From Pseudomonadota bacterium (GTDB taxonomy: Bacteria; Pseudomonadota; Gammaproteobacteria; Burkholderiales; Burkholderiaceae_C), in contig JAIUPH010000040.1 of assembly GCA_020161065.1 (NCBI GenBank), positions 1 through 64,000 on the forward strand: a stretch of 64,000 nt of DNA, read 5' to 3'. The notes beneath the pieces were generated by a model. It was not told where the DNA came from. It made no database searches and worked only from the letters and a program-made list of their open reading frames with translations. How positions within the stretch are numbered: the first letter of the stretch is position 1; the number at the start of each line of letters is the position of its first letter. Below are positions 45,840-64,000 of this stretch, in pieces. The translations under genes and the position numbers were made by a program.

Positions 45840-47384
45840 ATGCACATGACGCTTGGCCTGCACAAGGCTTTGCAGCAGCGGCCCGACGCGGAAGCCATCC
45901 GCTTCATGGGCCGCAGCACCACCTACGCCCAGTTCGGCGCGCGCGTCGCGCGGCTGGCCGGCGCCCTGCGCGCGCTCGGCGTCAAGGACGGCGAACGCGT
46001 GGCGATGTATTCGCTGAACTCGCAGCGCTACCTCGAATACGACCTGGCCGTGCCCTGGGCCGGTGGCGTGCTGGTGCCGGTGAACATCCGCTGGAGCGCC
46101 GCCGAGGTGCTGTACTCGCTGGACGACTCGGGCTGCGAGATCCTGATCGTCGACGACACCTTCAAGACGCAGGCGGCGAGCCTCGCCAAGAACGCCAAGA
46201 CGCTGCGCCACCTCATCTACGCCGGCGACGGCGAAACGCCCGCGGGCATGCTGAACTACGAGACGCTGGTCGCGCAGACCGAGCCGATCGACGACGCCTA
46301 CCGCCACGGCGAAGACTTGGCCGGCATCTTCTACACCGGCGGCACCACGGGTTTCCCGAAGGGCGTGATGCTCAGCCACAACAACCTGGGCGCGGCGGCG
46401 CAGATCTCGGTGCAGCTGGGCATCTACGGCCCCGGCTACACCTACCTGCACGCGATGCCGATGTTCCACCTGGCCGACTTCGCGCCGACCATCGCCTTGT
46501 TCCTGTGCGGCGGGGCGCACACCATCATCCCGATGTACGAGCCGCGGCTGATGCTGCAGACCATCACCGCCGAGCGGCCCAACGTGCTGCTGATGGCGCC
46601 CACGCTGATGCAGATGACGCTCGACTGGCTGGCCGCCAACCCCGAGGCGGCGCGCGAGATGGACCTGTCGTCGCTGCAGTACGTGCTGTATGGCGCCTCG
46701 TCGATCTCGCAGACGCTGCTCGACCGCACGCTGACCGTGTTCCGCAGCGCCAAGTTCATCCAGGGCTACGGCATGACCGAACTGGCGCCCACCGCCTCGC
46801 TGCTGATGCCCGACGACCACCGCGGCACGCTGCTGCGCTCGGCCGGCCGCGCCGTCAGCGGCGTGGAGCTGAAGATCGTCGACGGCCAGGGCCACGAGGT
46901 GCCGCGCGGCACGGTGGGCGAGGTCGTCGTGCGCGGCCCCAACGTGATGCTGGGCTACTGGAACAAGCCCGAAGAAACCGCCAAGGCGGTGCGCAACGGC
47001 TGGATGCACACCGGCGACGGCGCCACCATGGACGACGCGGGCTACATCTTCATCGCCGACCGCATCAAGGACATGATCATCACCGGCGGCGAGAACGTCT
47101 ACTCGGGCGAGGTCGAGAACGCGCTGATGAGCCACCCGGCGGTGGCGCAGTGCGCGGTGATCGGCGTGCCCAGCGAGCGCTGGGGCGAAGCGGTGCACGC
47201 GGTCATCGTGCCCAAGGCGGGCGCCAAGGTCGAGCTGGCCTCGATCCAGGCGCATTGCCGCGAGCTGATCGCCGGCTACAAGCTGCCGCGCAGCTTCGAG
47301 GTGCGCAGCGCGTTGCCGATGTCCAGCGTCGGCAAGGTGCTGAAGACCGAGCTGCGCAAGTCGTTCGCGGCCGAGCCGGCGTAG
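45840..47384 (+). CDS. Acyl-CoA synthetase (AMP-forming)
   Basis: 514-residue ANL-superfamily ligase that activates a carboxylic acid with ATP and CoA. The P-loop IFYTGGTTGFPKGVMLSHNN is at about 180, GYGMTELAPTASLL at about 310, and the hinge/A10 region YIFIADRIKDMIITGGENVY plus GKVLKTELRK at the C-terminus (about 500). ATG 45840 has a strong ribosome-binding site (GAGGAGAC). It opens the catabolic island, upstream of the LAL regulator. Substrate type (fatty, cyclic or aromatic acid) cannot be decided from sequence. Confidence 0.93.
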   Translation: MHMTLGLHKALQQRPDAEAIRFMGRSTTYAQFGARVARLAGALRALGVKDGERVAMYSLNSQRYLEYDLAVPWAGGVLVPVNIRWSAAEVLYSLDDSGCEILIVDDTFKTQAASLAKNAKTLRHLIYAGDGETPAGMLNYETLVAQTEPIDDAYRHGEDLAGIFYTGGTTGFPKGVMLSHNNLGAAAQISVQLGIYGPGYTYLHAMPMFHLADFAPTIALFLCGGAHTIIPMYEPRLMLQTITAERPNVLLMAPTLMQMTLDWLAANPEAAREMDLSSLQYVLYGASSISQTLLDRTLTVFRSAKFIQGYGMTELAPTASLLMPDDHRGTLLRSAGRAVSGVELKIVDGQGHEVPRGTVGEVVVRGPNVMLGYWNKPEETAKAVRNGWMHTGDGATMDDAGYIFIADRIKDMIITGGENVYSGEVENALMSHPAVAQCAVIGVPSERWGEAVHAVIVPKAGAKVELASIQAHCRELIAGYKLPRSFEVRSALPMSSVGKVLKTELRKSFAAEPA

Positions 47385-47461
47385 CATCGCCGCGGCGCCG
47401 GGCGCGGGCGTTATGCATCGCGCCCGCGCGCTCGCCGCCGACTGCCACCGCCGCCGCATCG

Positions 47462-63569: not shown

Positions 63570-63583
63570 GAGGAGCCGGCACG

Positions 63584-64000
63584 ATGAACAAGTCCCTGAG
63601 CCACGCCGACGTGAAGGTCGGCGACACGCTGCCGGCGCTGACGCTGCCGGCCATCGGCCGCACCACGCTGGCGCTGTACGCCGGCGCTTCGGGCGACCAC
63701 AACCCGATCCACATCGACATCGACTTCGCGCGCCGCTCGCGCATGCCCGACGTGTTCGCCCACGGCATGCTGTCGGCCGCCTACGTGGCGCGCGCGCTCA
63801 CCGACTGGGCGCCGCAGCGCCAGCTGCGCAGCCTGGCGCTGCGCTTCACCGGCATCACCCACCTGGGCCACCGGCCGACCTGCAGCGGCCGCGTGACCGA
63901 GACCTTCGAGGCCGGCGGCGAACGCCGCGCCAGGGTCGAGCTGCGCTGCGCCAACCAGTACGGCGAGGACAAGATCGTCGGCGAAGCCGTGCTGGCGCTG
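63584..64000 (+). CDS. MaoC family enoyl-CoA hydratase subunit (partial, runs off the window)
   Basis: 139 codons are visible with no stop. The hydratase-2 active motif is intact: YAGASGDHNPIHIDIDFAR, with the catalytic Asp and His, followed by DVFAHGMLSAAYVARALTDW. ATG 63584 lies 14 bases after the preceding gene, with AGAGGAG as ribosome-binding site. Together with the degenerate partner it would hydrate a bulky 2-enoyl-CoA. Only a few residues of the C-terminus should be missing if it has the usual length of about 140-150. Confidence 0.9.
   Translation, partial: MNKSLSHADVKVGDTLPALTLPAIGRTTLALYAGASGDHNPIHIDIDFARRSRMPDVFAHGMLSAAYVARALTDWAPQRQLRSLALRFTGITHLGHRPTCSGRVTETFEAGGERRARVELRCANQYGEDKIVGEAVLAL

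What the first reader, a model, noticed from the sequence alone, without database searches (positions are those of the whole stretch)
45840..64000. LAL-regulated catabolic island combining branched-chain beta-oxidation, secreted proteins and a PHA synthase
The sequence shows an acyl-CoA synthetase and an ATP-binding LuxR regulator, then a ten-gene minus-strand run with several overlapping or nearly abutting reading frames (alcohol dehydrogenase, SDR, HSL esterase, PhaE/PhaM-like protein, PhaC, GNAT, lipoprotein, DUF1254 protein, SDR, atypical crotonase) and a divergent arm (racemase, SCP-x thiolase, two MaoC). Knowing these families, this is a route from ester or alcohol to acid, CoA activation and side-chain beta-oxidation. 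I know of no described pathway with this exact gene set. The substrate is inference: a methyl-branched, isoprenoid or alicyclic compound.
Basis: partly seen in the sequence, partly recalled or inferred. Interest (0 to 1): 0.75.

Follow-up and report, generated by a model that had tools for sequence, protein, structure and literature searches.

The report
Branched-lipid oxidation island with polyester synthase
A bacterium carries, side by side, a gene set that looks like our peroxisomes' machinery for burning methyl-branched fats and a small set of genes that look able to make and break a storage polyester, and both sets recur together in other bacteria more often than chance would give.

Summary
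The reported genes are there, and they co-travel. The island runs to about 66045 on the contig, past the window, and consists of two recurrent modules. Module A (AMACR, SCP-x thiolase, two MaoC, SDR, acyl-CoA dehydrogenase, ligase, LAL regulator) resembles a dissected peroxisomal branched-chain beta-oxidation pathway: racemase, thiolase and SDR match AMACR, SCP2-thiolase and a (3R)-hydroxyacyl-CoA dehydrogenase best among solved structures. Of 71 regions sampled by its MaoC1 gene, 69 hold all four core genes and 42 a LAL regulator. Module B (HSL esterase, small phasin/PhaR-like protein, class III-like PhaC, GNAT) belongs to a separate PhaC clade. In 30 genomes tested, 15 of 39 PhaC genes lie within 30 kb of module A, under 1 expected. 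The lipoprotein and DUF1254 protein recur in a minority of loci. Best reading, from sequence alone: branched acyl-CoAs are oxidised through (R)-3-hydroxyacyl-CoAs, the isomer PHA synthases use, so PhaC could divert them into an intracellular polyester that the HSL esterase releases. Polymerase activity, substrate and co-regulation are untested. New variant of known kinds.

The parts
45840..47384 (+). Acyl-CoA synthetase (ACS), AMP-binding
   Evidence: Pfam AMP-binding 1e-87; NCBIfam NF004837 518 bits over cut-off 476; start; 81% identical copy beside the second PhaC module in this genome
47462..50176 (+). LAL-type (MalT-like) LuxR regulator: ATP-binding segment APAGFGKTT (by eye), MalT TPR, GerE HTH
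   Evidence: TPR_MalT 7e-28, GerE 1e-18; start; LAL in 42 of 71 cassette regions
50189..50956 (-). Crotonase (ECH), usual catalytic Glu positions look replaced (by eye, recalled positions)
   Evidence: ECH_1 2e-55; 69% homologue beside an SDR2 homologue in L154
51006..51773 (-). SDR2 oxidoreductase (TTG start)
   Evidence: adh_short_C2 4e-66; start; 65% homologue next to a DUF1254 protein in L067
51770..53188 (-). DUF1254/DUF1214 protein, probably secreted (signal peptide by eye)
   Evidence: best solved relative VPA0735, E 7.5e-44; 55-57% homologues beside cassettes in the P. jinjuensis and P. schmalbachii genomes
53244..54872 (-). Putative lipoprotein (LPP), 542 aa, lipobox LAGC (by eye), no known family
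   Evidence: no Pfam/NCBIfam hit; 27-31% homologues next to module B or A
54920..55519 (-). GNAT acetyltransferase, start overlaps PhaC stop by 4 bp
   Evidence: found beside 67 of 80 PhaC homologues
55516..56694 (-). PhaC, class III-like PHA synthase; Cys181, Asp337, His366
   Evidence: TIGR01836 293.6 bits, below cut-off 365.3; triad aligned to solved PHA synthases and invariant in the 6 sequences of A1
56697..57197 (-). Small PhaE/PhaR/phasin-like protein with basic Ala/Pro/Lys tail
   Evidence: window copy: no Pfam hit, TIGR01834 only at E 0.16; of 14 aligned relatives at E<=1, PhaR 13, Phasin 13, PhaE 7-8
57201..58586 (-). HSL-family esterase with C-terminal extension; HGGG, GDSAGG, Asp296, His326
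   Evidence: Abhydrolase_3 1e-67; LipP1 309.6 bits, cut-off 350; alignment A5
58618..59388 (-). SDR1 oxidoreductase
   Evidence: homologue in 16 of 80 PhaC loci
59460..60506 (-). Zn-dependent alcohol dehydrogenase
   Evidence: ADH_N 9e-28, ADH_zinc_N 5e-22
60750..61913 (+). Alpha-methylacyl-CoA racemase (AMACR)
   Evidence: CoA_transf_3 5e-86; best solved matches are AMACR/MCR, E 2.1e-120
61910..63097 (+). SCP-x / SCP2-type thiolase
   Evidence: NF006102 681 bits over cut-off 436; SCP2-thiolase type-1, E 1.3e-134
63126..63569 (+). MaoC1, FAS1-dehydratase-region type (HadA/ChsH-like)
   Evidence: FAS1_DH_region 9e-45
63584..64000 (+). MaoC2 (HadB / R-specific hydratase-like), ends at contig 64006; SDR3 64056-64886 and ACAD 64900-66045 follow outside the window
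   Evidence: MaoC_dehydratas 5e-17, SDR and ACAD domains

Best explanation
The island joins two modules. Module A: the ligase activates an acid; AMACR sets the alpha-methyl stereocentre; an acyl-CoA dehydrogenase, a MaoC pair, an MFE-2-like SDR and an SCP-x thiolase then run a round of beta-oxidation on 2-methyl-branched or bulky acyl-CoAs through (R)-3-hydroxyacyl-CoA, the bacterial counterpart of the peroxisomal branched-chain route; a LAL regulator accompanies the cassette. Module B: a two-part PHA synthase (PhaC with a small PhaR/PhaE/phasin-like partner) that polymerises (R)-3-hydroxyacyl-CoAs from module A when thiolysis or the propionyl-CoA outlet is saturated, with an intracellular HSL esterase to release the monomers; ADH and SDRs feed acids from alcohols or esters. 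Shown (sequence level): gene families, conserved catalytic residues of PhaC and HSL, recurrence of each module, their co-location. Inferred: flux direction, polymerisation, substrate, regulation, roles of GNAT, LPP, DUF1254 and crotonase.
For: AMACR and SCP-x thiolase identities. SDR3's best solved match is a (3R)-hydroxyacyl-CoA dehydrogenase, 2et6, E 2.3e-59, ahead of the FabG-type reductases (next 3.4e-44); MaoC2 matches R-specific hydratases, HadB and, weakly, peroxisomal hydratases. In 71 regions sampled by MaoC1, THIO, MaoC1, MaoC2 and SDR3 are all present in 69, ACAD in 54, ACS 53, LAL 42, AMACR 21; LAL in 0 of 48 HSL-less PhaC loci as a control. PhaC triad and PHA-synthase relatives; partner related to PhaR/phasin/PhaE in relatives. 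Module B is repeated elsewhere in the same genome (42-81% identical), its PhaC about 13 kb from the MaoC1 of a second cassette. 15 of 39 PhaC loci within 30 kb of MaoC1, at most 0.96 expected, 0 of 200000 simulations. MaoC1 (E<=1e-25) in 15 of 15 Pseudomonas genomes with this PhaC against 4 of 117 sampled genomes without it from the genus of one of them.
Against: The modules also live apart: 5 of 5 other cassettes found in the order lack the PhaC gene within the 20 kb fetched, and many PhaC-GNAT loci in Variovorax and Bradyrhizobium lack HSL and a nearby cassette. Only 5 of the 71 cassette regions (about 10 kb each side) hold this PhaC. No enzyme was assayed. PhaC misses the class III cut-off and the window's small protein hits no PHA family convincingly. 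Class III/IV enzymes are described as mainly making short-chain PHA (PMC6403647, start of abstract in the listing; PMC8231600, passages). No promoter-like site was found and no LAL operator was identified. Genomes in the tests are related, so the simulated tail overstates independence.
Confidence: 0.5

Rival explanations
1. The PhaC homologue is not a polymerase but a thioesterase or acyl-transferase of the catabolic pathway (for example esterifying or releasing a bulky hydroxyacyl-CoA), working with the HSL esterase and GNAT.
For: Score below the class III cut-off; distinct clade; GNAT beside it in 67 of 80 loci and HSL in 33 of 80.
Against: Cys-Asp-His triad aligned with solved polymerases; partner related to PhaR/phasin/PhaE, proteins of PHA synthesis and granules, in most of 14 relatives.
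Confidence: 0.25
2. Both modules are catabolic neighbours for one hydrophobic substrate class (sulfated or esterified alkyl, terpenoid or steroid-like compounds) but do not exchange intermediates; PhaC stores ordinary (R)-3-hydroxyacyl-CoA as a general carbon buffer.
For: Neighbours of some PhaC or cassette loci include sulfatase, alkyl sulfatase, DUF1302/DUF1329 and a P450-reductase fusion; DUF1302/DUF1329 proteins are reported essential for Tween 20 use (PMC10866462) and linked to monoterpene growth (PMC6394551), passages read; modules occur apart.
Against: Close linkage of the HSL-type PhaC with a probably R-specific cassette in Variovorax and Pseudomonas and twice in this genome; a distant PhaC homologue (25% identity) elsewhere in the genome could serve ordinary PHA (role inferred).
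Confidence: 0.35
3. Chance neighbours: a gene-rich catabolic region with no functional link between the polyester and oxidation genes.
For: Genome is rich in such genes: 39 matches to the AMACR query.
Against: Co-location in Variovorax, Pseudomonas and twice in this genome.
Confidence: 0.05

Closest known systems
Peroxisomal branched-chain beta-oxidation (AMACR, acyl-CoA oxidase, MFE-2, SCP-x; pathway recalled)
   Same: AMACR, R-hydratase-like MaoC, (3R)-hydroxyacyl-CoA dehydrogenase-like SDR and SCP-x thiolase, one gene per step in one operon-like run
   Different: Separate MaoC and SDR proteins instead of a fused MFE-2; acyl-CoA dehydrogenase instead of oxidase; bacterial LAL regulator
Class III / class IV PHA synthases (PhaC with PhaE or PhaR)
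   Same: About 390-residue PhaC with Cys-Asp-His triad, adjacent small protein whose relatives resemble PhaR/phasin/PhaE
   Different: Own clade below the class III cut-off; short partner with a basic tail; frequent partners GNAT and HSL esterase; sits in a catabolic island
Mycobacterial ChsH1-ChsH2 / HadAB MaoC pairs
   Same: Two adjacent unlike MaoC proteins matching HadA/ChsH and HadB/ChsH chains
   Different: Thiolase nearest to SCP2-thiolase type-1; heterodimer not shown
MalT/LAL-type regulators of catabolic clusters
   Same: ATP-binding N-terminus, MalT TPR, LuxR HTH, next to the cassette
   Different: Target operators and inducer unknown; below the MalT equivalog cut-off, 366.5 against 537

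Membership tests
Class III PHA synthase | Catalytic Cys-Asp-His triad in a lipase-like box | tested here: met
   C181, D337, H366 invariant in 6 of 6 and aligned to solved PHA synthases
Class III PHA synthase | TIGR01836 curated cut-off | tested here: not met
   293.6 bits against 365.3
Class III PHA synthase | PhaE subunit (PF09712/TIGR01834) | tested here: not met
   Window copy not found by PF09712 in the own genome; TIGR01834 E 0.16; relatives weak, 7-8 of 14 at E<=1
Class IV PHA synthase | PhaR subunit | tested here: inconclusive
   TIGR02132 hit by 13 of 14 at E<=1, best 6.2e-11; the one miss is the window copy
PHA synthase (any class) | Polymerises (R)-3-hydroxyacyl-CoA | not testable with these tools
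   needs enzyme assay
Branched-chain (peroxisome-type) beta-oxidation | AMACR | tested here: met
   (sequence level)
Branched-chain (peroxisome-type) beta-oxidation | SCP-x/SCP2 thiolase | tested here: met
   (sequence level)
Branched-chain (peroxisome-type) beta-oxidation | R-specific hydratase and (3R)-hydroxyacyl-CoA dehydrogenase | tested here: inconclusive
   Sequence relatives fit; stereochemistry not testable here
Branched-chain (peroxisome-type) beta-oxidation | Acyl-CoA oxidase for the first step | tested here: not met
   Acyl-CoA dehydrogenase domains score best, ACOX_C_alpha1 only weakly
LAL (MalT-type) regulator | ATP-binding N-terminus, MalT TPR, LuxR HTH | tested here: met
   TPR_MalT and GerE over cut-off, STAND NTPase below its cut-off; ATP-binding segment APAGFGKTT read by eye, strict G....GK[ST] pattern not matched
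HSL esterase (bacterial family IV) | HGGG, GDSAGG serine, Asp and His | tested here: met
   Serine, Asp and His invariant in 9 of 9; HGGG intact in the window copy, its first residue varies in two relatives

The most novel reading that the evidence does not exclude
This PhaC clade is a further class of two-part PHA synthase, built for catabolic islands, that polymerises branched (R)-3-hydroxy-2-methylacyl-CoAs into a so far undescribed methyl-branched polyester as an overflow buffer for peroxisome-type beta-oxidation, with its own esterase as depolymerase.
Probability: 0.25. Interest if true: 0.8.

Novelty: new variant of a known kind. Interest (0 to 1): 0.55.

Why it matters
If right, it links two fields: bacterial breakdown of methyl-branched or isoprenoid lipids, and polyester storage. 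It would give a bacterial, one-gene-per-step model of the human AMACR/MFE-2/SCP-x pathway, and a source of PHA synthases that accept branched monomers. It also gives a concrete, taxonomically broad set of loci in which DUF1254 proteins, LAL regulators and an unnamed lipoprotein family can be tested for function.

Tried and rejected
LPP structure: AlphaFold from 5 sequences gave mean pLDDT 46.9, so no fold search was made; the profile found no solved relative at E<=1 and four homologues hit no Pfam family at E<=0.01. PF09712 for the small protein: no match at the window locus. Promoters/repeats: no sigma-70-like site (0 found, shuffles 0.4) and terminator-like sites not above shuffles (4 against 5.1); the inverted repeats in the divergent 243-bp gap are GC-rich and I did not pursue them. 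AMACR copy at C4 (72% identical): no cassette in the 20 kb around it. Pfam scan of neighbours in L089, L085, L092 and L081 gave no substrate clue. The isoprene paper PMC9804861 (9 passages): polyhydroxyalkanoate, racemase, esterase and LuxR do not occur in its main text, although a relative of module B lies on that strain's plasmid (L125). The Alcanivorax pristane paper PMC6850023 (4 passages) implicates FadAB; racemase, MaoC and lipid-transfer do not occur in its main text. Ten paper searches listed nothing that by title or start of abstract describes the combination; several listings were cut (for example 15 of 63, 12 of 71) and only the held open-licence library was searched. Steroid route considered: ACS scored 255 bits against a cut-off of 750 for steroid-24-oyl-CoA synthetase, so not supported, not excluded.

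Full report
WHAT IS THERE. The window is the first 64 kb of contig C29 (125,960 bp) of a 6.29 Mb, 98.7% complete genome. Three members of its genus that carry the PhaC match, identically over the aligned PhaC, records named Rubrivivax sp., Burkholderiales bacterium and Proteobacteria bacterium, so it is a Burkholderiales relative. 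The ten minus-strand genes are packed with gaps of -4 to 71 bp; the ligase-LAL pair converges on them and AMACR diverges from ADH. The plus arm is AMACR, SCP-x thiolase, MaoC1, MaoC2, SDR3, ACAD (gaps -4 to 49 bp) and ACAD ends at contig position 66045, outside the window.

MODULE A. AMACR's best solved relatives are alpha-methylacyl-CoA racemases (E 2.1e-120). The thiolase passes the cut-off of NF006102 (681 against 436) and matches SCP2-thiolase type-1 at 1.3e-134. MaoC1 matches HadA/ChsH chains weakly, MaoC2 matches HadB, R-specific hydratases and, weakly, peroxisomal hydratases. SDR3's best match is 2et6, named (3R)-hydroxyacyl-CoA dehydrogenase, E 2.3e-59, against 3.4e-44 for the next, a 3-oxoacyl-ACP reductase. 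Together these are the enzyme set of peroxisomal branched-chain oxidation with a dehydrogenase in place of the oxidase (comparison recalled; AMACR's role is stated in the starts of the abstracts of PMC12682127 and PMC12246613, seen in the listing).

MODULE A RECURS. MaoC1 is rare in the order: 5 of 398 other genomes at E<=1e-25. All five keep THIO, MaoC1, MaoC2 and SDR3 together; one has a 41% LAL next to them, one has SDR2 (54%) and ECH (69%) relatives near them; none has the PhaC gene within the 20 kb fetched. I then searched MaoC1 in 30 genomes, my choice from those behind the 80 PhaC loci (not all of them): 28 of 30 hit at 1e-15, 27 at 1e-25, 72 places in all. I fetched 66 regions holding 68 of the 72 places and pooled them with the five above. 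In 71 regions of at most 20 kb: MaoC2 71, THIO 70, SDR3 70, ACAD 54, ACS 53, LAL 42 (score over 100 bits), AMACR 21, LPP 6, PhaC 5, SDR1 5, GNAT 4, PhaE 4, DUF1254 3, HSL 3, ECH 2, SDR2 1, ADH 0 at the thresholds used; all four core genes in 69. The sampling was through MaoC1, and 66 of the regions come from PhaC-bearing genomes, so these are not frequencies for all bacteria. As a control, LAL was found in 0 of 48 PhaC loci without HSL and 9 of 32 with HSL; the control loci differ in taxonomy.

MODULE B. A second copy lies on contig C16 of this genome: HSL 54%, PhaE-like 42%, PhaC 64%, GNAT 73%, ligase 81% identical. About 13 kb from its PhaC lies the MaoC1 of a second cassette (places): ACAD 49%, THIO 71%, MaoC1 55%, MaoC2 67%, SDR3 75%. 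In the genus, GNAT matches in 8 of 81 genomes at 1e-10, five of them (own included) at 48% identity or more; the four others carry the matching PhaC next to it. A scan of a collection of 84,980 species genomes with a PhaC alignment kept the best 80 loci of 230 confirmed stretches. Near PhaC, within 10 kb where held: GNAT 67 of 80, PhaE-like 51, HSL 33, SDR1 16, AMACR 7, ACS 6, LAL, THIO, ACAD and MaoC1 5 each, MaoC2, SDR3 and LPP 4 each, SDR2 1, and DUF1254, ECH and ADH 0 at the identity thresholds used. DUF1254/DUF1214 proteins less like the window's do sit in L091 (two), L089 (two), L067 and, behind its LAL, L161, and 55-57% homologues lie beside cassettes in L164 and L166.

WHAT THE PHAC IS. 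It hits class III PhaC (293.6 bits, below the 365.3 cut-off), class I far less (117). Cys181, Asp337 and His366 are invariant in 6 of 6 and align with solved PHA synthases, of which 5t6o shows Ala in place of the Cys. On a quick tree of 117 rows, 87 (this set, the window copy counted twice) form one supported group (99) apart from the other PhaC homologues of the order and from a third, 42% identical copy of this genome; a supported inner group (96) of 28 rows holds the window, C16, Variovorax and Pseudomonas copies, 26 of them with HSL, one of the other two being the duplicate of the window copy. The tool warned of long branches at deeper joins. The small partner was scanned in 14 aligned members at E<=1: PhaR 13 (best 6.2e-11), Phasin 13 (best 1.7e-6), PHA granule protein 12, PhaE 7-8; the window copy itself hit, among PHA models, only TIGR01834 at E 0.16. 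HSL keeps its catalytic Ser, Asp and His in 9 of 9 and has a loosely conserved C-terminal extension of about 100 residues and no evident signal peptide (extension and signal judged by eye).

DO THE MODULES TRAVEL TOGETHER. For the 39 PhaC loci in the 30 genomes, 15 have MaoC1 within 30 kb (5 within 10 kb); random placement gives at most 0.96; 0 of 200000 simulations reached 15. All 15 are HSL-type loci in Variovorax (5) and Pseudomonas (10); 12 further HSL-type loci and all 12 HSL-less loci are not near. Contigs were matched by equal length. At genome level, 15 of 15 Pseudomonas genomes with this PhaC have MaoC1 at 1e-25, while 4 of 117 sampled genomes without it do, in the genus of one of them (the sample of 119 also holds two PhaC carriers, one being its centre; that both calls drew the same genomes is judged from the handles listed). 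Species relatedness and sharing by transfer are not modelled: P. jinjuensis and P. schmalbachii PhaC loci are almost identical. Against a strict link: the five order cassettes without PhaC, and the Paraburkholderia, Bradyrhizobium and many Variovorax PhaC loci without a nearby cassette.

THE MOST COMPLETE MATCH. Variovorax sp. dw_308 (L067/L161) has, on one strand, HSL 64%, SDR1 73%, PhaE 44%, PhaC 76%, GNAT 65%, AMACR 73%, THIO 80%, MaoC1 81%, MaoC2 74%, SDR3 78%, ACAD 72%, ACS 70%, LAL 57%, then a DUF1254 protein; divergently a DUF1254 protein, an SDR2 homologue (65%), and only 30% identical ACAD and ECH relatives, which echoes the window's DUF1254-SDR2-ECH order. No LPP or ADH relative was detected in the stretch held.

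PERIPHERY. LPP has no family; 27-31% homologues lie before HSL in three Variovorax loci, after GNAT in one, and in cassette regions of Pseudomonas. Other neighbours of PhaC or cassette loci: DUF1302 and DUF1329 (L081, L084 scanned), sulfatase (L081, L162), alkyl sulfatase (L069, L074), ETF (L085), P450-reductase fusion (L093). PMC10866462 (two passages) reports that DUF1302/DUF1329 proteins of P. putida are essential for Tween 20 use and proposes transport; PMC6394551 (one passage) links the pair to monoterpene growth. These point to hydrophobic substrates, no more.

MECHANISM. A MaoC/MFE-2-type route passes through (R)-3-hydroxyacyl-CoA, while FadB-type routes pass through the (S) form (recalled). 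PHA synthases take the (R) form (PMC8231600, passages). So the cassette would make PhaC's kind of substrate directly, which gives a reason for the co-location. That PhaC accepts branched monomers, that HSL is the depolymerase, and that LAL controls both arms are inference.

NOVELTY. Most protein families are known; LPP has no family in the libraries searched. I found no paper describing this combination in the listings (titles and starts of abstracts, listings partly cut). A review of Burkholderia sensu lato PHA synthases reports one class III enzyme next to phaE in Caballeronia grimmae and calls the type not common (PMC8231600, passages). I rate it a new variant of known kinds.

Noticed in passing
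window 39090-41636: Proton-pumping pyrophosphatase fused to a C-terminal OmpA domain, which I find an unusual pairing.
   Followed up: no
window 41716-43641 and 43879-45600: Radical SAM protein with a weak B12-binding match (below its cut-off), then a glycine-betaine-type binding protein fused to its permease.
   Followed up: no
window 5665-7349: Two frames that cluster (at least 45% identity) with ETF alpha and beta genes found near PhaC in L085, L067 and L069; possible electron acceptor for the island's dehydrogenase, but about 40 kb away.
   Followed up: no
L162, L178, L188, L190, L194 (Pseudomonas sp. H9, one 605 kb contig): Six MaoC1 copies within about 260 kb of one contig, seven in the genome: a large branched-chain catabolic region.
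   Followed up: partly
L084 and L086: PhaC loci of P. jinjuensis and P. schmalbachii are nearly identical and share flanking genes, suggesting recent transfer of an island.
   Followed up: no
L139: A PhaC-GNAT pair of the proteobacterial type in Corynebacterium sp. CNJ-954: cross-phylum transfer or contamination.
   Followed up: no
L125 (Variovorax sp. WS11 plasmid pVarWS11_iso): PhaE-PhaC-GNAT-SDR1-HSL relatives on a plasmid of an isoprene degrader; the isoprene omics paper's main text lacks the terms searched.
   Followed up: partly
L093 and eight other loci (L117, L121, L126, L130, L134, L136, L138, L143): P450-reductase fusion near HSL-less PhaC genes, one in Variovorax, the others mostly Bradyrhizobium and other alphaproteobacteria; only L093 was scanned, the rest cluster with it.
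   Followed up: no
L066 (contig C35 of this genome): Third, 42% identical PhaC with a short upstream frame weakly like PhaE (E 0.135) and a frame clustering with alkyl sulfatases, among ADH, ligase, thiolase and ACAD relatives.
   Followed up: no
window 50189-50956: Crotonase whose two usual catalytic glutamates appear replaced (by eye; recalled positions), likewise in a 69% homologue: possibly not a hydratase.
   Followed up: partly
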